Source: Undaria pinnatifida (Eukaryota > Sar > Phaeophyceae > Laminariales > Alariaceae). From it: DNA of 64,000 nucleotides. Shown in pieces: positions 70 to 47,900 of this stretch. The translations under genes were made by a program, and so were the position numbers. Positions within the stretch are counted from its first letter, which is position 1; every line of letters starts with the position of its first letter. The notes under the pieces are model-generated. The model was given only the letters and a program-made list of their open reading frames with translations, was not told where the DNA came from and did no database searches. The stretch is taken from positions 8,675,599 through 8,739,598 of the forward strand of contig JABAKD010000010.1 of NCBI GenBank assembly GCA_012845835.1, read 5' to 3'.

Positions 70-2523
70 CCTAACCGAGGAAAGGCCCAGTACAGGCTTG
101 ACTACATACTGACACGGCAAGTGGATGGACGATTGGTACGTAATATCACTGTGCGGACCCCACCCAGGGAGAACGCTGAGTCGGACCACAACCTCGAAAT
201 TGGAAATATTCGCCTTTTGGGCCGCATCGCACCAAATCGTCCAACGAGAGTCATCAAAAACCGGCGAGCTACTGATCCACCAAGATTAATGGCGGACCCG
301 CATCTCCGGATAAATTTCCAAAACGCGATAGCAGCCAAGCTTGCCTCCCCGATACCCGGTACTAATGCCGGAAGCGGTGATGACATAACCTTATTACTGA
401 CCGAGACGCTACTGTTGAATGCGGCCGACATAGCGACCCCTATTTGGCGCAAACAAGTACCGAGGGGCTGGTGTGCGACCGAGAAGACGAAAGCGGAGTT
501 GAACGCACGATGGCAGGATAGGGAATCCGCGAGGAAACGGGTCCGTTCTGCTCCAAACGATCGTTGTCTACGGCGAGCCTTGAACGCGACCACCAAACAG
601 CTGAAACGCACGCGGGCAGAAGCTGTACAGAGGATCTTCGAAGATTACGTTAGCCAGCTCGAAGGGCGTATCCGAGAAGGTGATCAATTTGGCTTCTACA
701 AACACCTCAAGGGGATGGATGAGGAAGGGAAGAGGCGTTCAACTCGCAGTACATCAAAGACGAGGAGGGTCGATTGCTGCGGGATAATGCCCTCATCTGC
801 GAGCGGTGGGTGAGGTGTTTTCACAAACTGCTCAACACCAAGTCGCCGACCCTTGACCCGAGCATTGTGGACGAGCAGTGGCACCCGTGCAGACCACTGG
901 ACGATGTCCCGTATAGGTACGAAGTAGAGGAGGCGATCCGTGCGTTGGCGAACCGAAAGGCGGTAGGGCCCGATGGTCTCCCGGCCGAGCTCTTGAAGGT
1001 TTTGGCTGACGAAGGAGAACTGAACACTCTCGGAAAGTTCCACGAAATCATCGTCGCTGTGTGGAGGGGAGGTGGCGCGCCGCAACAATGGAAAGATGCA
1101 ACGATCAAGGTGCTTCACAAGAAGAAAGATCGGAGTGTGGCAATTATCGTGGCATTTATCTCGTGGCTCACGCCGGCAAAGTACTCCTCAAAGTCATCGG
1201 GGGTTGCCTGAGTGACTATTGCGAACGCGAGAACATTCTGCCGGAGGAACAGTGTGGGTTCAAACCCCAACGTTCGACGGTTGACATGATGTTCGTAGTA
1301 CGACGACTGCAGGGACTGGCGCGGAAGGACATCCCCTTGTACTTGTGCTTTATCGGTCTCACCAAAGCATATGACTCCGTCGACCGAACCCTTCAGTGGG
1401 ATGTCCTTGCTCGTTTTGGCGTGCCACCGAGAATGCTCGCCGTCATCCGCCAATTCCACGACGGTATGCAAGCATGCGCGCGGCTGGATGATGGAGAGTG
1501 CTCGGATAAGTTCGACGTGGGGCAAGGTCTCAGGCAAGGATGCGTGCGCGCGCCACTGCTGTTCAACATGTTTTTACGGCGGTACTGCGTGTGGCCGAGA
1601 AACGCTCCCTTACTGATGCAGCCATCACGGACAACATGGTGCAGCTCGAACGAAAGGAGAAAGCGAGAGGAAGGGCACTTCACGCACTGGCACAGTCGAC
1701 GGGCGGAGGGGGAAGAAGGGGGGGGAGGTGCAGAGGTTGTGGGGTATGCTGTACGCGGACGATGCGGGCATCGTATCGCGATCATCAGAAGCGCTGGAGA
1801 GGATGATGACGGTGATCGTGACTGCGTGCTCGTCGTTCGGGCTCACGGTCTCCGAGGCGAAAACAGAGATCATGTGCCTGCAAACCAAAGGCGGGGGGAA
1901 GGTGTCGTTCACAATCAATGCAGCCGGCCAGGTGTACAAACAAAACAATCGACTTTGTGTACTTGGGCGGGGCTATCACCACAAACAGAGACCTTAGCAT
2001 TGCAATAACGCGGCGTATTCAGAGGGCCTGGGCGTGCTTCCAGCGGTACAAGATGAATATCTATGATCGCCCGGGTGTGCGCTTACGGTTGAAGGCGCGG
2101 TTGCTGAAAGCCGAGGTGGTCGATACACTACTTTACGGTTGCATGACGTGGAGCCCGAACAAGCCTGACTATGACAAGCTACGACGGATTCACCACTCCA
2201 TGTTCCTCCGATGCCTCGGATGGCGGAAACGGAAGCGCGACGACCACACCCTATCGTACGCCGACGCGCTTGCCAAGAAAGCTTTCGAGAGCATAGAGGC
2301 GATAGTGCGCAAACGGAGGATATTGTTTGCGGGATTCGTAGCACGTATGGGGGAGGAGCGTCTGCCACAGAGGGTGATGTCTGGGGAGCTTGTTGGGGGT
2401 AAGGGCTACTCAGGGGGGCAAGAAAAGGACTGGCTGGCTCGTCTGAAGGAGGATATGTCAGTTTTTGGAATGAAATTCGAAGGGTGTCGAAAGGCTGCTC
2501 AGAAGGCCGGCAGACGGTTTTGA
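70..2523 (+). pseudogene. LINE endonuclease-reverse transcriptase, frameshifted
   Basis: Read in several frames this is one polyprotein. Endonuclease tail: RLDYIL near 96-113 and SDHNL near 181-195. The RT N-terminal part follows around 780-1,130 (AVGPDGLPAELLK, a conserved RT1 block). The palm is in a new frame from about 1,125 (CGNYRGI, then FKPQRSTVD and GLRQGC). The catalytic YADD box lies near 1,752 in yet another frame. The C-terminal LLYGC...W and RR..F.G...RM blocks lie at 2,130-2,360. At least four frame changes (near 780, 1,125, 1,560 and 1,900) show it is not functional. It terminates with TGA at 2,521-2,523. Confidence 0.85.
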
Positions 2524-9599: not shown

Positions 9600-10860
9600 G
9601 ACTTCATCCTTTCGTCGTGCTTATCTCGCCTCCAGCGCAGCAGAACCCGTTACCTCATACGTTCGTGTTCGCGCTATTGTTAGTTGAAGTATGAAAAGTC
9701 ATATCATAAACGTCATATTTTATTTGTGATAACCAGCAAATTACGTATAAATAGTCACCACTTGCGATGGATGTGGCGTCGTGTGGCTAGTCTCCGCGGC
9801 AGTTGTCGTAGCTTTCGCGGGTCGTTTTTTTCGGGCGGATGCACGAATCTGCGACCTGCGCATTGTTCATTAGGGTTTTGTGGTGGCATAATCGTGCTTT
9901 AAGGATTATAAGATGCGTCATTAATCGCTCGTGCTCGCCTGCGCTAAACAAAATTCGTTATATTTCTGAGTGGAAGGTGTGGGTTGCCTAACCAGACGTT
10001 CGCGCTTCCAAAACCCAACCATGGATGCCGTCAAGTACAGACAGACATTGCATCGACACAACCATATGTCTTTCGATAGCAGAAAAAAGTAGCAGACTTT
10101 CAACTGTCAAATCTATAGCATTTGTAATTGCACATTAAAAAAGTAGCCTGGTATTAGATTGCGATTGGTGTCCCCCCTTGCGGCCTCTCTACCCCTTATG
10201 CTCATGCCGTCGATCTTCACCCTACTGCTACTACTGCTGCTTCTGCCTCTGCAGCGTGGGCACCTCTTCCTTCTACCTCTACTGGTTGTCGCGTCCGATA
10301 CTCGCTGCTGCTGTGCTGCTGCTGTACTATGCTGATGCTGCCGAGACTCTCCTATTTTCCCATCATTATTTCCCCTGGAACTACCCCCCCCCCTGTTACC
10401 CGGTTTTCCTCCAATTCCTTTCCGTTCCGCCAAACTCCAGACTGTTCCGATATCTTTACATTATTATTTTAGAAAGTTGAAGAAAAAGTTGGGGTATTGT
10501 AAAGATGTGTGTTGCGGGATCCTTGTCGATATGATCCTCAGAAGAGGCAGGTGTGTCCATCATGAGACCACAGCTGACAGCAGTACAAAACCTGGGTAGG
10601 TAGTAGATTCTCTCACTATTGTTATCGAGCAAGGCTTGCTAGTTTTTGGTCAGGATACAAGAGTGATCGAGAGGGGGGAGGAGAGGAGGGGGGGGGGTGA
10701 AAACTTGGCTTTGGCCAAGCTCCAGATGCCGGCTCTCGTACTGGCAAGGTGTCCAAACTCCATGCCGAACGTCAATTCTAAGTACAAGCTGCTAACTGGC
10801 TACGTCGGCCACTTCTACAAGACCATGTGCGTGACTCATTGCATACTTGAAGTGAGAGTA
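9600..10860. other. No gene seen
   Basis: Low-complexity CTG/CAG-rich stretch at 10,210-10,340. Open frames there encode Ser/Arg or Leu/Tyr runs and are judged compositional. Confidence 0.5.
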
Positions 10861-10867
10861 AAGACCA

Positions 10868-11397
10868 TTGAAATAACGCGGCGTATTCAGAGGGCCTGGG
10901 CGTGCTTCCAGCGGTACAAGATGAATATCTATGATCGCCCGGGTGTGCGCTTACGGTTGAAGGCGCGGTTGCTGAAAGCCGAGGTGGTCGATACACTACT
11001 TTACGGTTGCATAACATGGAGCCCGAACAAGCCTGAGTATGACAAGCTACGACGGATTCACCACTTCATGTTCCTCCGATGCCTCAGATGGCGGAAACGG
11101 AAGCGCGACGACCACACCCTATCGTACGCCGACGCGCTTGCCAAGAAAGCTTCCGAGAGCATAGAGGCGATAGTGCGCAAACGGAGGATATTGTTTGCGG
11201 GATTCGTAGCACGTATGGGGGAGGAGCGTCTGCCACAGAGGGTGATGTTTGGGGAGCTCGTTGGGGGTAAGGGCTACTCAGGGGGGCAAGAGAAGAACTG
11301 GCTGGCTCATCAGAAGGAGGACATGTCGGTCTTTGGAATGAAATTCGAGGGTGTCGAAAGGCTGCTCAGAAGGCCGGCAGACGGTTTCGACGAGTAG
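10868..11397 (+). pseudogene. LINE RT C-terminal region, 5'-truncated
   Basis: Open to the TAG at 11,395. It encodes [31 protein letters not shown] and RRILFAGFVARMGEERLP as in copy A. The frame continues upstream to 10,636 by chance, giving an apparent 253-residue ORF whose first ~77 residues are not LINE sequence. The RT palm and endonuclease are absent. Confidence 0.85.
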
Positions 11398-14365: not shown

Positions 14366-15025
14366 TTACTCATCCTCCAACGGTAGGTTCAACAAAAACT
14401 TACGGTGAGATTTAAAAGGGATTGCAGCAAGGGAATTCGTCAAAATATCCGCGTGCTGCTCTTCAGAAGCTGCAAATTGGATGTCAATCTTCTTGGCACA
14501 AACTAACCCTCGGACGAAATGAAAACACACGTCTATGTGCTTGCTCCGCGCGGAACTAAGCGGGTTCTCAGCCAGCGCTATGACCCCCTGATCTTCAAAA
14601 AGTCGGACACACGATCCGCTTAGCTCTGGAAAAATAAACGATAATACTGCGCCCGTAAACAGAGCCTCCTTCACCCCTTCACCCAGGGCTAAATATTCTG
14701 CTTCTGCTGTTGACAACGTAACGCACCTCTGCGTTCTACTTGCCCAACTGACGGCAGCACCCCCCAAGGAAATTACCGTCCCCGACACCGAACGCCTGTC
14801 GTTAGATTTGTCGGCGTAGTCGGCATCATTATATGCAGTCAGATCCCATCCCGAACCCCTTACAAAATCCAAACCCATGCCCCTTGTCCCGTGGAGGTAT
14901 GCCATGATCTTCAGAACGGCTTCCCAGTGCCTATCGGTGGGGTTGTGAAAATGACGCGCCACAGCACGCACCGCTTTCGAGATGTCGGGCCGCGTCATGG
15001 TCGACAGCCACATCAGACTGCCCAC
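14366..15025 (-). pseudogene. Copia RNase H / C-terminal pol
   Basis: 220 codons open. It shows GSLMWLSTMTRPDISKAV, then the RNase H core AYNDADYADKSNDRRS, LSTAEAEYLAL and a K-H-I-D motif near SKHIDVCFHF. The catalytic Asp and Glu of a Copia RNase H appear present, so this piece alone is intact, but it is cut off from the RT frame. Confidence 0.85.
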
Positions 15026-15142
15026 AGTCTCCCTTTACGGCCAGTCTCCCTTTGGCTCGCCCTCCTCTCTTCGACCTAGTTCAACGTCAGGGGTCGCGGG
15101 GATGTCAGAGGACGAGTTCACACCAAAACAATTCAGCATGCT

Positions 15143-15760
15143 TTAAACGAAAGCCTCCTGCGTGATCTCCAACGTGCCCAATTCCCAGTTACGCTTGAAA
15201 GCACAACCTGTATACCAAGTTAACTCGCCTAGGTTATTCGTGGGAAACTTAGTATTCAATGCGGCATGGAAGTCTCTGCATGCCTCGTCCGATCCTGCAA
15301 TCACAATGTCATCTACATGAACGGCCATAATCAGTTTTGCCTTGCCATCCACAAGCATGCGAAAAACACAAGGATCAGTTCTACACTGCTCCATATCGTA
15401 TTCTACCACGGTATCTACCAGTAGTCCGGCCCGCTGCCGTCCGCTCTGATTTAGACCACATAGTGATCTGTTAAGGCGAGCAATATTTCCTGGCATGTCA
15501 CCACACCTATCGGGTAGTTTTATATGTATATCTCCGCGTCGAGTTTCGCGCGAACAAAAGCTTGTGCAACGTCTGGATGAAAAATCTTCCGACTCGCGCT
15601 CATTTGCAACGGCCGCCAGAATTTCAAGTGACGCTGACGATGGGGTTAGCGCAAACGCTTGGAAGTAATCTAAGTCTTCCACCTGTCTAACGCCCTCAAC
15701 CACAAGTCTTGCTTTCGTCTTCACTACCATGCCATATTTTTCAGTCTTATAGGAGAATAC
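15143..15760 (-). pseudogene. Copia reverse transcriptase
   Basis: Shows KTKARLVVEGVRQVEDLDY, LNRSLCGLNQSGRQ and VHVDDIVIAGS; the last is the Y/V-x-DD catalytic box. The middle (about 15,540-15,600) deviates from the family, probably by a double frameshift. It is separated from RNase H by frame breaks near 15,030-15,140. Confidence 0.85.
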
Positions 15761-15763
15761 CCA

Positions 15764-16674
15764 CTACGCATCGACAGGTTTCCGCCCTCGCGGCGGTGTC
15801 GCGGCTTGGTATGTTCCGGTCGTTTTGTGGTCGTCCAATTCACTCTTCATGGCCTTACGCCGCGCGCTTTGTACTTTAAACGCTGTACATCTGCTATGGA
15901 CTGCGGTGGCGGTTCTCCATCTTCTGGGAAACCACTCGGCATGCACACGCTTAACTCCCCTATATTTTCTTCCACAGCAGGTCCTCCAGCCATCATGGTC
16001 ATTGCGTCCTCCGTCGTCCTGGATGTACTCTCCAGTATACTCCCAAACTCCGCCCACTTTTGCACCGCCGCAGACATCGCGTCCTCGATCGCACGCTGAC
16101 GTTGAGCAGATTCACCTTGCAGGCGTTGGCTCTGACCCCGGGTCCAGCCCCTTACTGTCGGGGGTAGCCATCCCCAGCTACTGAGCTCGTTAGCTGCCCT
16201 ACCCGACAGGACCGCGGGGGGGTCATCGCCGTTCCCTTGGTCGGTGCCGGAGGCTGCTGATGCGCCTGAATCGCTGTCGGCCCTCCATGCCGGGACCGAG
16301 GAGGCGTCCACCGCGCCCCCTTGAGACGAATCCATCGTATTGACTGTTTCGGCCGTCCCTGCAGGGACCGAGGAGGCGTCTACCGCGCCCCTTTGAGACG
16401 AGTCCATCATCTCGGCTGTTCCGTCGCCAGCATCGCCGGCGACAGGTGCCTCCTGTGAGCGCTCCCGCAAGAACGCGTACAAATCAAACCACCACGTCAC
16501 GTCGAGGTCGGTCAGGCGATCCAGATCTTCGTCCTGCTCGTCCATCACCCCTTCCCCCACCTCGATCTGACGTGCTCTCGTCGTCGGCCTCGGACCCCCC
16601 CGCTTCCTGAGACGGAGAGTCATGCAGCTGGGCAGGTACAGGTGGTGCAGGCGACACGTGTTGCCAGGTGACAT
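15764..16674 (-). pseudogene. Copia integrase-RT linker region
   Basis: Serine/alanine/acidic low-complexity spacer with an imperfect internal duplication (two blocks rich in GAVDASSVPA near 16,310 and 16,390). It ends with the start of the RT module near 15,780. Confidence 0.6.
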
Positions 16675-16699
16675 GACACGTGATAAACAGAGTACGGTG

Positions 16700-17465
16700 T
16701 TTGGTCAGCACTCGAACGGCGTCTTGGGGGTGGTTAAGCGCAGGGCCCAGGTAAAAACACTCCTGTGCTTTCGGCTGAGACTTGTTTTCCCTCTTCACCT
16801 TGCAAAGAAGCACCACCGGGGCGGTTTTACCGTACCACATCCCGTACGTCGACTGTTTTATAGGAAAGCGGACGTTGCTGTGCGGTTCAAAGCATCGCAC
16901 GCCGAGTGCGACGCTTCAACTCACGAGCCTGGATTCGACCCGCCATGGCGGCCGTCTCAATCAAACCTAGCGCGCGTTCGGCTACCCCATTGAATTGGGG
17001 ACTGTCGGCCGTGGTGAATTCCTGTTTGATGCATCGCGATCTACATTTCGCCAAACTTTTCCCCGCGAAATTCACCGCCTCCATCGGATCGGACGATCAC
17101 CACCTGTAAAGGGACACCATCTGCACGAGTGCCCGCGAGAATCTGCTCTAACATTTCCGCAGCGTCCGATGTGTGTCGCATAAAATACACCCATATATAC
17201 CGTGAAAAATCGTCGCGCACGGTGAGAGTATACCGCTTCCCCCCGAGAGACTCTACCGCCTTAGGCATTCAAATCCACAAAAAAAAAAAAACGAGCTTCT
17301 TATTCTCTCGAGTGTGTGTGGACTGCTTGATACCTCAGCGGAGACCCTTCGCCAAGGAGCACCCTTTGCACTCCAGCAGTTTTCCGTCGAGGACGATTCT
17401 TTGTTGCTCCACGGTCTTGCGGAGCAGTGCCTCGTGGGAGTGTAGGGCCGCGTAGTGGAAGTCTT
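16700..17465 (-). pseudogene. Copia GAG-pre-integrase and integrase
   Basis: Reading right to left: LECKGCSLAKG (pre-integrase zinc-binding tail), then TVRDDFSRYIWVYFM and IVRSDGGGEFRG. After a frame change come FTTADSPQFNGVAERA and the C-terminal block ending in CFYLGPA. The D...D...E triad residues can be assigned. A 13-base A run at 17,279-17,291 and several frame changes disrupt it. Confidence 0.8.
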
Positions 17466-18020
17466 TTATGTTAACCACGGGCTTATTGGGCAGTTTTCCC
17501 GGGGCGAGTACGACACAGGCATCTTCCGTAGTGCTGCAGTCGACCCGGTAGCCGTAAAGGGTGTACAGAATACAATCGAATGCTCAGACTTAAGCTTGAC
17601 TACAATCCCTGCGGGAAGTCCTTCAAAAGTGTGACCGTGCTTCACGAGAATGGGTAGGGAAAATAGATGGTAACGGATGTCCGGCACGTGCGCAAAATTC
17701 CTCAGCATTACTCGTACAAGACCGTTTCCGGACCGAAACACAAAGTTAATATCGCCATATCCTTCGATTGTGCGGGTTGAGCCGTCAGCAAAGCTCAGTT
17801 TCAAATTGCACTCTCTGTAGTTGATCATGCCATCTGCTGAAGGCGTCATGTGAGTAGACGCTACACTATCGCAAAGACAGGCCTCATCCCCTACCTGCCA
17901 AGGCGACTCCCCTTCCCCCCTTTTGCCCGAAACGTTACGGCACTCGCCTGTCTCTCCGGCCTTCAAAGGTGAAGCCTCAGCCGTATCATAATCATCATCG
18001 TCGTCCGCCGCCGCCAGCAC
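17466..18020 (-). pseudogene. Copia aspartic protease
   Basis: The active-site motif reads LCDSVASTHMT instead of the usual D-S-G-A-S, so the glycine of the catalytic loop is Val. It is followed by the usual GYGDINFVF and HVPDIRYHLFSL blocks. The substitution suggests an inactive enzyme. Confidence 0.8.
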
Positions 18021-18029
18021 AGCTTCCTC

Positions 18030-18841
18030 TTTCGACGTGGGACAGACATCAGCAGCGTGCCCTCGTCCGTGGCATCGACTGCATAGCTCCTCCGTGCAGT
18101 CTACCCTCTAATGGCCCTTCTTGCCACACCTGTGGCATCTCACCTCGCAGGTGCCATCTTCGGTGGTTTTGGCACCTCTGCCATCGCCGCCGACAGTCGC
18201 GGCCGAGCCACCACCGTCCTCGTTGGCGCCTTTACCGCTGCGTCCTTGCTGTCCCCGACGTCTATCTTTTCCCTTATCGCGGCCTCCACCTTTCCCATGG
18301 GCACTGCCGCCGGCCCTTTTCTGCGGCCACCACCGCCACCGCCGGCGAACATAGCATGGCCGGCATGGCTAGCATTGGACCCCTTCTTCCTGCTTCCAGA
18401 AAGTCGGTGATACCGCTCTCGTACAGCCTTGATGATGTCCTCGCGGCCGATACTGTCACGAGATGCAAGGTTCCTTGCCTCCACCTCGTATTGGGCAGGC
18501 AGAGCATCAATGAAAATTGTGTACAGCATGTGGTCGTCGAGGGTAATTCCTGCTGTACGCATTTCTGTGGCAAGATCCTCGATCCTACCTATTTCCTCAA
18601 GCGGGTTGCTCCCTGGCGCTATCTTAAAACTATTAAGGCGTCGGGAGAGGGAGGATTTTGCCCCCGTCGTTTGAGGGCCGTACCACGGGAGGAGAGCTTC
18701 CCACGCTTCTCTCGGCGAGGCACACCTGTGCAATTTACTCTTGTCGACCTTGCTGTTGAGAGCCGTCGACAGGAAACTCCACGCCAGTACATGTATATGT
18801 ACACTTTCGCGGCTGTACCCCATGTCGACAAGTGGATACAT
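18030..18841 (-). pseudogene. Copia gag (UBN2-like) with CCHC zinc knuckles
   Basis: Contains AWEALLPWYGPQTTGAK, RRLNSFKIAPGSNP and the ALPAQYEVEARNL block typical of UBN2 gag. A Gly-rich basic linker follows, then two CCHC knuckles (CHRCGKKGH and CSRCHGRGHAADVC) near 18,045-18,140. A TAG directly after the first knuckle interrupts the frame. The N-terminal ~80 residues of a normal gag are missing. Confidence 0.8.
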
Positions 18842-18939
18842 TGGACCTTTTATGAGTATGCTTTACATTGGACCGTGCCTTCTGCCCGTCGATATATGGC
18901 ACATCCCGTGTCCTTGTCCATTTTTCATCCCAGGGAGAT

Positions 18940-40600: not shown

Positions 40601-43600
40601 ACTATTCATACAGTTGATACATCATTGTTGAATGACAAGCAATGCATTTTTGCTCAGCAGCGCAGCGCCGTGCTACGCTGTGCGTTATTTCGTACATACA
40701 GTACCAGATATGATGCGAAGTACCAAGTACCGTTATAATATTTTTGTGTACTTGTCTTTTTGCTTTCTTCATTGATTGAGTGTGCTCTATCGGTCCTCTT
40801 CACGAGTATGTTTTTTTATTTTCGCAAATTACACTCTTACTGCCGATCAGAACGTGACATCGCCAGCAAGCACAGAGCACAGCACAGCACAGTCAGCCCT
40901 GCACAGATAGCTCTTGGCATTATCAAATCGCTAGTTGCGCCAAATCGTAGGCCTCTTGTGTCTGCCCCCATCACATTTAGTTATGTTATTCCTTGCGCGA
41001 GCGTCGCGGGCGGCGTCAGCCGCCCGCGCTGCTGAGTCCATACATCGTATGAGTGTAAAAATAACGTGTGTTGTCGGTGTTGTGCGTATTTTGTCAGCAA
41101 CAGATCTGTCATGGGCACGTCTATGAATAAGTGCAAAATATTACTATTAATATTAATACAGAGTACGCCCAATTCCTGCCGTTAAGTGCAGTATTGTGTT
41201 ATACCCTGTATACAAACCTGGTATGAAAAACGCCGTTGCATGCGTCTGACGGTAGTATGCTTACCGCCGTGTCCTTGCGCCACTGAGTTCCCCACCCCCC
41301 TGGGCACTTACCGGAGGGGAACCGTGTGTATTACTACACTGTATAATACCGATATACCCTGGTAGTATATGGTAGCGTGTATTTTCGTATGACGCTGATG
41401 GTTTGAAAGGCTTGACACATCTTCCCCGTGTGCCGTAAACTCTGCTCGACAGAGTACGAAGCCCTCGGGTACTCGTCACCAGTCGGTGGAGAAAGCTTAG
41501 CTTTTGTGATTTCTCTGCGCTTTGTGACGCAAGAGTGCAGCAATGTGCGGTATGCGATGCGTTTCACGGACGAAGCTGCCTCCTTGGCGCGACATATCGT
41601 ATGGTGCATGGTACTACTACTGCTGTAGTCCGATAAGGCGAACATGTGATAGACTGCAATAGCAGTATTATATACCTGACACCAGGTACCAGGTAACAGC
41701 TATTAGCAGAATGACGACGGGCAAAAGGCGACCCAAATTCGCTTGACACAACTGCAACTCGCTTTCTATTGTACGTACCCGTTCCTTTTTCTGCTGCTAC
41801 TCTGCTGCTACTATCAATAGGGCTGTATGTTAGTTGACTCTCGCCACCTAGCATAGTTATTTTATATAGTTAGTTGCGACGGTGCTAACTATCCAACTAA
41901 TATCGTATTTTGATTTACTTGTTCGTATTGTAGGAAGGCTTGCTTGGGTAGGGGGTACGTAATTCCCGGTGACACCTGGTACGTGGTACTACCGCGCTGC
42001 AAGCGCAGAGAGGGTCTTCTGCAACTCGTGGCGCATCAACCCATGCTTATTCTCACCGCGAATGGTGTACCCGTATCCTGCGATGGGTTGTCCCAGCGGT
42101 GGGCCGGGCCCACTGGTGTTGCCTCTGGAGATTTTATTTCGCTTTTTTACGGCTGTGCTTTGCCTGATCGTTTATTTGCGGGCGTAGACCCGAAACCTGT
42201 CGGGGCACTTTTATGTTTGGTTTGTAAGTTGGCACCATAGCACATCCAATACCGGTGACGGTATCACATGGTAGTTTCTGCGTTAGCTCAACTATGAAAC
42301 GTTCTTGAATCGTCGGCGACTAGTAATGTGTAAGCTCTTATGCTCCCATGCTCCTATCGTCGAAGAAATCCCAGTGCATGTGTGGTGTGCTACTGCCTGC
42401 TGCACGAGTATGCACCGTTACGACACCACGAAACACCAGTGAGAGACCCTCAGACTGGGACGGCATAGTTCTGGTACATGCCTCTGAAATCTGATAAGCT
42501 GCGACGATTTTTAGAGTGCACCTGCTTAGTAATAAACCAGAGATAAGCGTGGGGGGTTCTCGTATCAAGCTTTTTGTGCGCAAATTACGTCATCTGTCGT
42601 GATGTTTGCCTCCGACGGCGCCTTTAGCGGGGGATCCTCCGGAAGCACCTCCGGCGGGCCCTGCGGGGGCGCCTCCAGCCAGGCCCCCTCGGCCGGGGAG
42701 GGGCGCTTCGCTCGCCTGACTGCGCCAGCCAACTGCTAATAGTCGATTAGTCAGTTAGTGGGTGGCTTCGCAGCCAACTAATGGCCCCGGGTATTACCCT
42801 ACAAAGAACATCTGTAAGTTATGTGGGACATTCATACCCGCACCCGGAACTTCTGGAAGTTCTGTACGACGTTGATACCCGTACCCGGAACTTCTGGATG
42901 TTCTGTACGCCCGTGCCACAATACCCGGGGTACGGGTGCATCATGTTTTGTACCCGCTCAGATCTTCTGTGAGTTATGTACGCCTGTGCCACAATACCCG
43001 GAACTTCTGGAAGTTCTGTACGATTTCCGTACCCGTACCCGGAACTTCTGGAAGTTCTGGAAGATCCCCATACCCTTACCCGGAACATCTGTGCCTTCTG
43101 TAAGATTGTGGCACAATACCCGTGGTACGCGTATGCCTGTGTTACAATACTCGGGGAGCTCTGTATTCAATCAGGTTTAATTCGAAGAGTATGTTATGGA
43201 TTGTGATGTCTTATTTTGTCAGCTACACAAACCGAACACTGAACACGGGAATGCATATCATACAAACTTCGATCTCACAGCTGGAGTGCATTTTTATTTT
43301 TTCAATAATATCACCTGTTGTTCATATTAATTTGGTTTCTAAGGGCACGTATTAACGAAGGACACTTGTGCACGCTCAAGTTCTGTAGAGTTTGTGGATT
43401 CCGGGTAAGGGTATGGGAGTCTTACAAAACTTCCAGAAGTTTCGGGTACGGGTATGGAAGTGTCACAGAACTTGCAAACGTTCCGGGTATTGTGGCACAG
43501 GCATACAGAACTCACAGAAGTTCCGAGCGGGTACAAAACGTGATGCACCCGTACCCCGGGTATTGTGGCACGGGTCTTACAGAACTCACAGAAGTTCCGA

Positions 43601-44876
43601 GTACGGGTATGAAAGTCTTACAGAACTTCCAGAAGTTCCGGGTGCGGGTATAAAAGTCTTACAAAACTTCCATGACTTCCGGGTATTGGGGCACGGGCGT
43701 ACAGAACTTCCAGAAGTTCCGGGCAGGTATAGACATGCTGTACCTGTACCCTGGGTACGGGTATCAACGTCGTACAGAACTTACAGAAGTTCCGGGTACG
43801 GGTATGAGTGTCCTAAAGAAGTTACAGAAGCTCTTTGTAGGGTAATACGCGGGGGTAAATACCCCGGGTATGGTTTTACGTGTATCCTACAGACAGAACG
43901 AAAATAGAAAGTTCGGGTACGGGTATGAATGCCGTACAGAACTCACAAACGTTCCGGGTACGGGTAGGGCTGTACAGAATTCACAGAAGTCCCGGGTACG
44001 GGTAATTCCCGGGTAAATACCCGCCTCAAAAGGGGCGAAAAAACAAACAATTTGACTGGTCAACAAAATACACCATTGTCAACGCGTTTCCAATTGCTGC
44101 CATTGGCATACTGCATACACTGATGCACTCATAGGAAATAACACATACTGCTACGTCTACTACCACTGGTCTTCTGTAACAGATAATGCCATAGCGTACC
44201 CCGGCTGTGGCGCCTAAAAAACATCATGGCGGTCGCAAGCCCAATTTTGCCACTAGCTCGATAAGTCAAGTGCCACGACAAAGAAGCAACGCCACCGAAA
44301 ACACGGAGTATAGTTCAAGACTTCGATGATATGATAGCGATATCTGCATTATTCCGATCGGAAAAAAAAACATTGACTGCGCAATGCGTGGTTTCCCGAT
44401 AGGAGGAAAAAAGAAAAATATCGTTGTTTCAAACAAATCGAATCGATTTCAATTCGATTCATAAAACTGATGCATTTCCTCCCACAGCTGTCAGATTTTG
44501 TCCCCCTCAGAAACGGGTTTTATAGTTTCCGCGCAGACTGCCTAACATCACCCTGTTGACCCTGATAGCTACACTGTAGTTGCAAGGGGAGTCGCCGACC
44601 TATATCCTTAATGAGGACACACAACCCGTAATACGCGCGATCGGAGTATCACACACAGCTTGCAAAGATGAGTGTCGACAAAATATTCGATCTCACAGCT
44701 GGAGTGTATTTTAATTTTTATAATAAAACTGAATAATTTCGATTCAAAAGTGTCCTTGGTTAATACGATAATACGTGCCCTTAGAAACGAAAGAAACATG
44801 AACAACAGGTGCTCTTATTGTATGATACATACTGCTTGCTGTGTTTAGGGTTCGGTTTGTGTGACTGACAAAACAT

Positions 44877-44907
<31 letters not shown>

Positions 44908-47900
44908 ATCCTCCGGCGGATGGGGAAAAATAAAGCTTTAGCTCACCACACTTCCGCGTATTTTCATACGCGTCGTGTGTCGATTTAACTCAGTTGCTTT
45001 CGCAGCCCAACGCTAGCTGGCGCACCCTTCGAGTCCCATTGTAGGTATAGCGTAAGCTGTCCCTATCATTGGTCCTCGTTACAACCCCGGCAGCGCAAGC
45101 TGCCGTTGTATACGGGTGCGTGTGTATGTCGACCCGGCCTGTCCCCTGAGGGTCAGGTTCGGTGGAGATAGCCACCCGGAATGTCATCTTTCCGGGTAGT
45201 GTGGGACTTGCGCAAGCTCACCCACTAACAAAACCCCTGGCCATGGGAGATAGCCTTCCGCCGGACTCGGTCCAGTTACGGTCCACCCTACCCATTCGGG
45301 CGTTGGTCCTCGGATGTATGATACATACTGCTTGCTGTGTTTAGGGTTCGGTTTGTGTGACTGACAAAACATGACGACGTCCTAATTAACCCCTCTGGGA
45401 CTAGGCTCTTCGCAGCCCGCTATTATTAGTCGAGCAGCCCGCGCGTGCGCCGAGACCTTGGTCACAAAAAAGTTGGGTCAGCACAGCAGACGCAGCGCGT
45501 TTCTTCACCCAAGAAAAGACTTATTGTGTAGAAGTGCAGCCCTCGGGTAAACTCGCACCGCGGCCGTGTCGCCTCCCGGTAACACGCTGGGGACGTCTGC
45601 CCTTTTACTGTTGATAGAAGGTCCCTCGGCCCTCAGAATATCACCGCTATTGTTCGCTCGAGGCAATTTTGACCCTGGTCGGGTGATCCCACGCCCTGAG
45701 AGCAGTCAAAATTCAGTATGTAAAAATGATCACGAAAAATGATCACCAAATCAGCGTCGAAGTGCCTCGCGGGAATAGCGTTCTTGTGTACTTCTCTGAA
45801 AACTCCCCAGACAGCCGCGGGCTTGGGAAGGCGTAAGATCTCACAGCTGAGGACCCCAGGCGGCGTGCAGGCTTCATGCGCCTACCGGCGTACCCCTGTA
45901 GGCCGAGTCCAGGGGTGATGCCAGGTGTGCGTGTGTGCGTGCGTGGCTGTGCTATACAACGCCCTGCGTTCAAGTTCGGGGATGTCTTTTTTCATCCCCG
46001 GGCTGAACAGACCGGTCTGTCAGGTGAAAAGTACGAGAATTGATCATTTTTTATGATCACGAAGACCTCCTTGGAGTCACAAAAAAGGGTTAGTGCATAA
46101 TACGATTTTCGGATTAACCCTGAATGAATACAGAGCTCCCCGGATATTGTAACGAAAGTATACCCGTACCCCGGGTATTGTGCCACAGTCTTACAGGGAT
46201 CACAGAAGTTCCGGGTAAGGGTATGAGGATCTTACAGAACTTACAGAAGTTCCGGGTACGGTTACGGATGTCCTACGGAACTTACAGAAGTTCCGGATAT
46301 TGTGGCACAGACGTACAGAACTCACAGAAGTTCCGAGCGGGTACAAACCATGCTGTACCCGTACCCCGGGTTTTGTGGCCACGAGCGTGCAGAACTTCCA
46401 GAAGTTCCGGGTACATGTATGAATGTCGTACAGAAATTCCAGAATTTCCAGATACGGGTATGAATGCCCTACAGAACTTACGAAATTCTTTGTAGGGTAA
46501 TACCCGGGGTAAATACCCCAGGAATACCCGGCATAAAAATCCCGGGTATAGGCACTTGTTGAGGTTAACGATTTATCGCTTGGGTGATGGTTGTCGATAG
46601 CCCTCAAAGCTACGACGGGTTGCCTCGGGAGCTGGCCCACAGTGAGAACACACGCCATGCAAGTTGGAAAATCCTCTACTTCAAATCGAACTCCACCCCC
46701 GAGGCCGTGTATTTACCTGGGTATTACCCGTACCCGGAACTTCGGTAAGTTCTATATGCCGGTGCCACAAATACCCGTGGTACGGGTACAGTATTGTTAT
46801 ACCTGCCCGCAACTTCTGTAAGTTCTGTACGCCCGTGCCACAATACCCGGAACTTCTGGAAGTTCTGTAAGATTTTCATACCCGTCCCGGCATTTCTGGA
46901 AGTTCTGCAAGACTTTCATAGCAGTACCAGGAATTTATGTGAGTTCTGTACGACCCGTGCCACAATACCCAGGGTACGGGTACAGCATGTTTTGTACCCG
47001 CCCAAAACTACTGAGTTAAGTACGCTCGTTCCACATTACCCGGAACTTGTGTGACTTCTGTAACACTTCCATACCCGTACCCGAAACTTCTGAAAGTTCT
47101 ATAAGACTCCCGTACCCTTACCCGGAACCCACAAACCCTACAGAACATAACCTTGTAAAATTCCTTCTTGGTCGATCTCACAGTAGAAGTGTATTCTTCA
47201 TTTTTCTGAATATGTCATAAGTACAGCCAGTATTACAACATATGATGTGTATTGGTGTTTACGTAGCTGTAGACTAATGCATGACCACGGACTTGATTAT
47301 GCGAGTTAATGTGGGAACAACAACTACTAACTTGGAAATACGAGGAGGCCACCGGATAGAGAAAAACCGACTGACCGTGGATTTTGGTAACCCAGCAGGC
47401 GTTAACAATTAGTCGGTTAACAACGTCTACAATCACGTTCTTGTGGTGTTGTTTTTTTGTCTTGTGTCGTGGCAGTAAGTTTGCAGCAATGCACCACGTG
47501 AAAATTAACGTGATAGGGTGAACGTTTGGCTCAAGCGGCAACAAACAGAACCAAATACACACTTGGGTACTTCGGGAGTACCTAACAAGGTTCAATCGAG
47601 GAACAATAAAAAAAAACGCCATGGCTTGGAGACTGAAACCTGCCAAACGACACACGGTTTAATCGTTGTTTCGATTTTGGGCTCAACCGTAACGCCTGCT
47701 CCCTCTTGTATCCTGTTTATTTTTTCGAAAATGAAATATGTTTCGAAAATGATACTATCCGGTGCCCACCTACTTGTAAAACAGCTTTCTTGTAAAACAG
47801 GATCAAACCAAGATTTTCCGTATATGTGAAACACTTTTGGTCGATTTCAAAATCCAATTCGTATCGTGTACGAGTATCAAGCTCGAGGCGTGTACCCGAG

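What the first reader, a model, noticed from the sequence alone, without database searches (positions are those of the whole stretch)
44819..45375. Retroposed structured RNA flanked by a perfect 61-bp target-site duplication
A 435-bp insert with a 28-nt poly(A) (as T on the plus strand) and no ORF sits between two identical 61-bp direct repeats. LINE-driven retroposition usually leaves about 7-20 bp. The insert contains several perfect hairpins (GGCAGC-GCAA-GCTGCC; ACCCGGAA...TTCCGGGT; CTTGCGCAAG) and an ATCCTCCGGCGGAT element beside the tail. The perfect duplication implies a recent event. It may be a new SINE from an uncharacterised non-coding RNA, or a staggered-cut mechanism with an unusually wide offset.
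Basis: partly seen in the sequence, partly recalled or inferred. Interest (0 to 1): 0.78.

Follow-up and report, generated by a model that had tools for sequence, protein, structure and literature searches.

The report
LINE tail retrocopy with fixed front
The insert is a recent copy-and-paste duplicate of the structured tail of a kelp jumping gene; hundreds of copies begin at or near the same letter and thousands share its end, but the unusually long 61-letter duplication beside this one looks like a one-off.

Summary
In detail: a 435-bp insert (44880-45314, sense on the minus strand) with T28 and no ORF above 65 aa lies between perfect 61-bp repeats. The genome matches the published kelp Undaria pinnatifida assembly. 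The insert is not a retroposed free-standing ncRNA. It is the end of a LINE: the last 23 coding nt, stop codon, 3' UTR and poly(A); the LINE has Exo_endo_phos (APE-type) and RT domains. Counts at <=2 mismatches: 6,116 places carry its 3' end with poly(A), 825 the short element's 5' start, 5 the LINE junction across that start. So insertions pile up at one point and rarely go further; an older subfamily does the same (20 of 20 inspected). LINE and short copies interleave in a weakly supported, ladder-like tree; the UTR folds with moderate covariation support. The 61-bp duplication is an outlier: of 64 other copies, 44 show 4-13 nt and 20 none. Most likely the LINE emits, or is reverse-transcribed only as far as, a discrete ~405-nt 3' RNA: a SINE-like family tracking its LINE, a new variant of a known kind.

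The parts
44819..44879 (.). 61-bp target-site duplication, left copy
   Evidence: perfect repeat; other copies of the family have 4-13 nt or none found
45315..45375 (.). 61-bp target-site duplication, right copy (5' side of the element's sense)
44880..44907 (-). poly(A) tail, 28 nt (T on plus)
   Evidence: most other copies have tails of about 12-38 nt
44908..45313 (-). element body: last 23 coding nt of the LINE ORF, stop codon, complete 3' UTR
   Evidence: 98-100% identical near-full-length copies genome-wide; contiguous with LINE ORF in L040/L048, L044 and L097
45314..45314 (-). one extra T between duplication and element; the LINE has A there and the target's next base is A
45288..45290 (-). 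TAG stop codon of the LINE ORF (...PPSTEDQRPNG*), 23 nt inside the element
45257..45265 (-). 5' arm of the long-range helix UCCGGCGGA
44912..44920 (-). 3' arm of the long-range helix UCCGCCGGA; relative LINE C30 changes both sides at two pairs

Best explanation
A discrete ~405-nt poly(A)+ RNA corresponding to the 3' end of a kelp LINE was inserted here by that LINE's machinery through target-primed reverse transcription. Shown: the sequence is the LINE 3' end; hundreds of copies carry the same 5' start, 23 nt before the LINE stop codon, and thousands more share only the 3' end; very few go further 5'; the boundary is the same in an older subfamily; short duplications and poly(A) tails accompany most copies. 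Inferred: the boundary is the 5' end of a real RNA, made anew from the LINE by internal transcription start or site-specific cleavage, because insertions end there within a few nt and the short copies seem to follow the LINE's own sequence changes. Inferred: the structured UTR is what the LINE protein recognises. Inferred: in this one event the two target nicks lay 61 bp apart.
For: Longer copies L040 and L044 run in frame into a LINE ORF; Pfam RVT_1 3.9e-32 and a sub-threshold zf-RVT, Exo_endo_phos 1e-11. Counts 6,116: 825: 5 for 3' end, short 5' start and LINE junction, reversed-pattern controls 0. Junction sample: 34 of 40 start at 0 to +5, 4 at +8 to +31, 2 are LINE copies. Tail-centred sample: 4 of 30 start at 0/+1, 26 at +102 to +253, none longer. 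Old copies: 20 of 20 have unrelated DNA upstream, starts 0 to +5. The tree interleaves LINEs and short copies. The block -40..+79 is 114/120 identical between LINE C22 and LINE C29 against 84% overall. Duplications of 7 nt or more: 34 of 65 copies, against 3.0% of mismatched flank pairs. Fold z -5.1; 10 pairs with two-sided change against 3.8 +- 1.5 shuffled, 1 of 500 as high.
Against: No transcript data: a 5' RNA end is not shown, and an absolute RT stop would leave the same genomic pattern. No promoter or ribozyme was found: no Rfam hit in the window at gathering score or in L048:1-900 up to E 3, no tRNA. The tree is weakly supported (3 of 14 inner branches starred). The junction block is not unique: another ORF window reaches 38/40, and LINE C30 shows at most a weak rise there. 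The covariation structure was derived from the same 9-row alignment, one of its five measures is ordinary (63 of 500), and the long helix alone is not decisive (28-40 of 500 shuffles on four measures, 175 on the fifth). The LINE's 5' end could not be read.
Confidence: 0.6

Rival explanations
1. Ordinary 5'-truncated LINE copies with an unusually absolute reverse-transcriptase stop: every copy comes from full-length LINE mRNA, and a structure, bound protein or ribosome near the stop codon halts the enzyme at one point.
For: The copies share the LINE 3' end and poly(A); 26 of 30 are truncated within the UTR; there is a predicted hairpin a few nt upstream of the boundary.
Against: 5 places carry the LINE junction against 825 with the short start, which leaves little room for the LINE itself to multiply; a 10-bp predicted hairpin inside the UTR is passed by every copy that reaches the boundary; the predicted upstream hairpin has 5 bp and ends about 8 nt short of the boundary.
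Confidence: 0.25
2. A self-standing SINE with its own internal promoter that multiplies from short copies, its 3' part shared with (or captured by) the LINE.
For: 825 places with one 5' start; 0-120 nt block relatively conserved between subfamilies; a B-box-like GGACCAAGTCC (inspection; motif recalled).
Against: No tRNA, 5S or 7SL match; no convincing A box by inspection; internal TTTT and TTTTT would end pol III transcripts (recalled rule). LINE C29 is homologous on both sides of the junction, and LINE rows sit at three levels of the ladder, though that tree is weak.
Confidence: 0.13
3. The 61-bp repeat predates or is unrelated to the insertion (tandem duplication or unequal exchange).
For: The duplication length is unique among 65 copies; the flanks are rich in other repeats; two other copies, L070 and L087, did land in tandem-repeat DNA.
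Against: The repeat directly abuts the tail and, but for one extra T, the element's 5' start, where duplications sit in the sister copies; it is perfect and no third copy was reported.
Confidence: 0.05

Closest known systems
RTEX-N1_Ec32 of Ectocarpus (PMC12477816; passages read)
   Same: Brown alga; ~600-bp non-autonomous element in more than 6,000 copies sharing its 3' end with autonomous LINEs; the authors considered that it may be a SINE.
   Different: There the origin of the 5' region was not determined; here the whole short element is contiguous LINE sequence. Sequence homology was not tested (sequence not held).
SIDE/SIDER, NARTc and RIME of trypanosomatids (PMC4035085; passages read)
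   Same: Short elements derived from a LINE.
   Different: They carry the LINE's 5' Pr77 promoter/ribozyme hallmark and are truncated, internally deleted or degenerate; the kelp element holds only the LINE's 3' end and has no detected ribozyme.
5'-truncated L1-type LINE copies (recalled)
   Same: Poly(A), short target-site duplications, LINE 3' end.
   Different: Usual truncation points are dispersed; here there is a wall at one point besides a dispersed set inside the UTR.

Membership tests
LINE-mobilised (TPRT) insertion | poly(A) or 3' tail and flanking target-site duplication | tested here: met
   no duplication was found for 20 of 65 copies
LINE-mobilised (TPRT) insertion | 3' end shared with a LINE that encodes RT and endonuclease in the same genome | tested here: met
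SINE (strict definition) | tRNA-, 7SL- or 5S-derived head | tested here: not met
   no Rfam hit at gathering score in the window; only four weak bacterial sRNA, miRNA or snoRNA hits at E 1.1-4.5; no tRNA by ARAGORN, run with the bacterial code
SINE (strict definition) | RNA polymerase III promoter | tested here: inconclusive
   judged by inspection only: a B-box-like stretch, no convincing A box, internal T runs; no expression data
SINE (loose definition) | short, non-coding, multicopy, discrete 5' and 3' ends | tested here: met
ordinary 5'-truncated LINE copies | dispersed 5' ends with no preferred stop | tested here: not met
   34 of 40 in the junction sample start at 0 to +5; 825 places against 5 across the junction. 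The 26 truncated copies do look ordinary.
HDV-like ribozyme-bearing retroposon | ribozyme at the 5' boundary | tested here: inconclusive
   no Rfam match up to E 3 in L048:1-900; an undescribed ribozyme is not excluded
RTE-X LINE clade | RT phylogeny within RTE-X | not tested
   no reference LINE RTs held; the best solved relatives are R2 and L1 ORF2, which says nothing about clade

The most novel reading that the evidence does not exclude
A LINE that recurrently manufactures its own SINE: a subgenomic 3' RNA with a fixed start overlapping the end of the RT reading frame is produced from a few near-stationary LINE copies on one chromosome and scattered genome-wide, while the LINE itself hardly moves. 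The conserved block spanning the junction would be the start or processing signal.
Probability: 0.45. Interest if true: 0.72.

Novelty: new variant of a known kind. Interest (0 to 1): 0.5.

Why it matters
How SINEs are born from LINEs is usually inferred after the fact (recalled). Here a parent LINE, the boundary and successive subfamilies lie in one genome, so the birth step can be tested directly by mapping one RNA end. The genome paper listed only 326 SINE pieces in this species (PMC7058681, passages read), against 6,116 3' ends of this family found here; whether that paper put them under LINE or Unknown I could not see.

Tried and rejected
Rfam at gathering score over the window gave 0 hits; at relaxed threshold over the element gave 4 weak chance-like hits; over the LINE junction gave 0. 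The B-box-like GGACCGAGTCC of the window copy contains an A-to-G change seen in 1 of 40 aligned copies; the family has GGACCAAGTCC, so it is no evidence for pol III. The 65-bp repeat behind L040's tail looked like a second long duplication; it is better read as the 5' end of another truncated LINE copy. L070 and L087 show imperfect repeats (71 bp at 90%, 124 bp at 88%) reaching the element's 5' edge; both targets are tandem arrays, of about 98- and 41-43-bp units, so I did not count them as duplications. The right flank was searched for an empty site and gave only another dispersed repeat beginning at about 45385. A non-templated T at the 5' joint was considered as a sign of template run-off and dropped, because a final T is also common in the duplications of truncated copies. 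A 451-bp stretch expected, by distance, to hold the 3' UTR of a 77% relative on C22 showed no homology; that is uninformative. The tree used 17 rows, with 5 of the 40 young copies. Note entry 5 gives 20-21 copies without duplication; the recount is 20.

Paper searches for this or similar families. None of the listed titles or abstract starts names this element. I saw listings only, except passages of PMC7058681, PMC12477816 and PMC4035085. That covers open-licence PMC only.

Full report
Observation. The 61-bp direct repeat at 44819-44879 and 45315-45375 is perfect. Between them lie 435 bp with a T28 run at 44880-44907 and no ORF above 65 aa. The minus strand of the body folds at -170 kcal/mol, z -5.1, with 0 of 100 shuffles as stable.

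Organism. The window lies on contig C2 of a 511,146,479-bp genome in 68 contigs. One contig, C34, is 16,510,065 bp long, exactly the scaffold N50 published for an Undaria pinnatifida assembly (511,280,173 bp, 114 scaffolds; PMC7058681, passages read). I take the organism to be this kelp (Laminariales); the small differences in length and contig number are unexplained.

Copies. Searching the genome with the whole finding gave 44 matches from 40 scored of 3,146 candidates: 40 near-full-length places at 98-100% identity and 4 partial ones. Of the 40 (window included), 38 begin within one nucleotide of the same base, and L040 and L044 continue upstream. In the 40 aligned bodies most copies differ from the majority by 0 or 1 base, and only two positions carry the same variant in more than one copy, so the sampled copies are very young.

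Parent. The upstream parts of L040 and L044 are identical over 184 bp and are coding: they end a LINE ORF ...CCPCCGKEVPETIAHILLRC...AMRRCPPSTEDQRPNG*, whose TAG lies 23 nt inside the element. The 987 residues tested match RVT_1 (3.9e-32) and, below cut-off, zf-RVT. A second C22 copy, with a shifted reading frame, also shows Exo_endo_phos (1e-11). The best solved relatives are R2 and L1 ORF2 proteins. The LINE clade was not determined. Upstream of the readable part the sequence reads N, so the LINE's 5' end is unknown. The element is therefore the LINE's final 23 coding nt, stop codon and 3' UTR with poly(A).

The wall. I tested whether these are ordinary 5' truncations. (a) A query of the last 150 nt gave 40 perfect places from 851 candidates; 30 were cut as loci. 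Of those 30, 4 start at the boundary (0/+1; these four, the window among them, were also in the first set), 26 start at +102 to +253 and none is longer. (b) A query of sense positions 61-210 gave 40 perfect places from 1,991 candidates. Of the 40, 17 start at 0, 8 at +1, 9 at +2 to +5, 4 at +8 to +31, and 2 are the C22 LINE copies (19 already held, 19 fetched and read). Four of the 17 also match the LINE's A at -1, about what chance gives. (c) Whole-genome pattern counts at up to 2 mismatches, with zero hits for the reversed patterns: 6,116 for the 3' end with poly(A), 825 for positions +1 to +33, 5 for a pattern spanning about -17 to +16. (d) A 599-bp ORF query found 7 places, and a 901-bp RT query found 4, all on C22: two at 99-100% and two at 77%. 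Taken at face value about 13% of 3' ends reach the boundary and under 1% of those pass it. The patterns tolerate divergence differently, so the ratios are approximate.

Age. An older copy (L066, 86% identical to the LINE) brought 40 scored places from 5,287 candidates, itself included, the others 86-92% identical to it. By the match table 37 of the 40 reach query position 1-5 and 3 begin at 17-22. I fetched the 5' edge of 20 of the 39 others, all from those that reach position 1-5: 16 start at 0/+1 and 4 at +2 to +5, and none shows the LINE upstream (at best 5-10 of 20 bases match over ten offsets). The boundary is thus old. In a 17-row tree LINE C30 pairs with an old short copy, LINE C29 lies among old short copies and LINE C22 lies inside the young ones; only 3 of 14 inner branches are well supported. 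Between LINE C22 and LINE C29 the block from -40 to +79 is 114 of 120 identical, against 84% overall, though one other ORF window reaches 38 of 40; LINE C30 shows at most a weak rise there (32, 31 and 32 of 40 against 73% overall).

Structure. On a 9-row alignment the consensus fold has 122 pairs: 10 pairs change on both sides against 3.8 +- 1.5 in shuffles (1 of 500 as high), 94.3% of cells are paired against 93.5%, and the number of further pair types is ordinary (63 of 500). The fold was derived from the same rows, which flatters it. The helix joining 45257-45265 to 44912-44920 has two pairs with two-sided changes in C30, but alone it is only suggestive (28-40 of 500 shuffles as high on four measures, 175 on the fifth).

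Target sites. Of 66 distinct copies (70 loci less 4 duplicates), one, L040, is a scoring artefact. Of the remaining 65, 44 have duplications of 4-13 nt, 20 have none found, and the window has 61; lengths of 7 or more occur in 34 of 65, against 3.0% of mismatched flank pairs. The 4-6 nt cases are partly chance, and the method finds only exact duplications. A looser search for flank repeats flagged two more long ones, at L070 and L087, which are tandem arrays at the target. I conclude that the long duplication is a single-event oddity. Long duplications at LINE insertions are known from human L1 work (recalled, not looked up).

Mechanism. Shown: LINE-derived 3' sequence, inserted with poly(A) and duplication; fixed 5' start; persistence in an older subfamily. 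Inferred: the start is an RNA end. If the template continued upstream, copies that reach the boundary should spread upstream as truncated copies spread within the UTR; instead they stop within a few nucleotides. Transcription start, cleavage and absolute RT arrest remain possible; I give a discrete RNA 0.6. Because short copies seem to follow the LINE's own changes, I favour repeated production from the LINE over self-propagation of short copies, but LINE-SINE recombination could mimic this.

Known relatives. The nearest published case I found is RTEX-N1_Ec32 of Ectocarpus, a ~600-bp element in more than 6,000 copies with a LINE-like 3' end whose 5' region was of undetermined origin (PMC12477816, passages read). 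Trypanosomatid SIDE/SIDER elements are LINE-derived but carry the LINE's 5' hallmark (PMC4035085, passages read). By strict rules this is not filed as a SINE, since no tRNA-, 7SL- or 5S-type head was found; it behaves like one.

Noticed in passing
window 44464-44725: Another dispersed repeat borders the target on the left; pieces recur at 82-98% identity beside several other loci (L029, L047, L046, L017; L052).
   Followed up: partly
window 45385-46092: A second dispersed repeat of about 700 bp begins about 10 bp right of the duplication; 40 scored of 257 candidates, mostly 87-91% identical.
   Followed up: partly
window 42806-43830 and 46202-47128: Degenerate tandem units of about 41 bp (GAACTTCTGGAAGTTC core) lie on both sides of the site, in both orientations.
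   Followed up: no
window 1010-2523 and 10600-11397: Fragments of a different LINE (RVT_1 6.6e-17 for 1010-2005); its C-terminal part recurs at the second place (by eye).
   Followed up: no
window 14366-18862 (minus): Copia-type remains: Retrotran_gag_2 at 18143-18862, and a copia-like C-terminal ORF at 14366-15034 by eye (no Pfam hit).
   Followed up: no
G000 contig C22, about 21.6-23.3 Mb: The four places found with the LINE's RT region lie within 1.7 Mb of one contig, while its 3' ends are spread over many contigs; possibly a stationary source region.
   Followed up: partly
L008 (C32), old copy: An older short copy carries an internal array of repeated GGACA units, about 70 nt.
   Followed up: no
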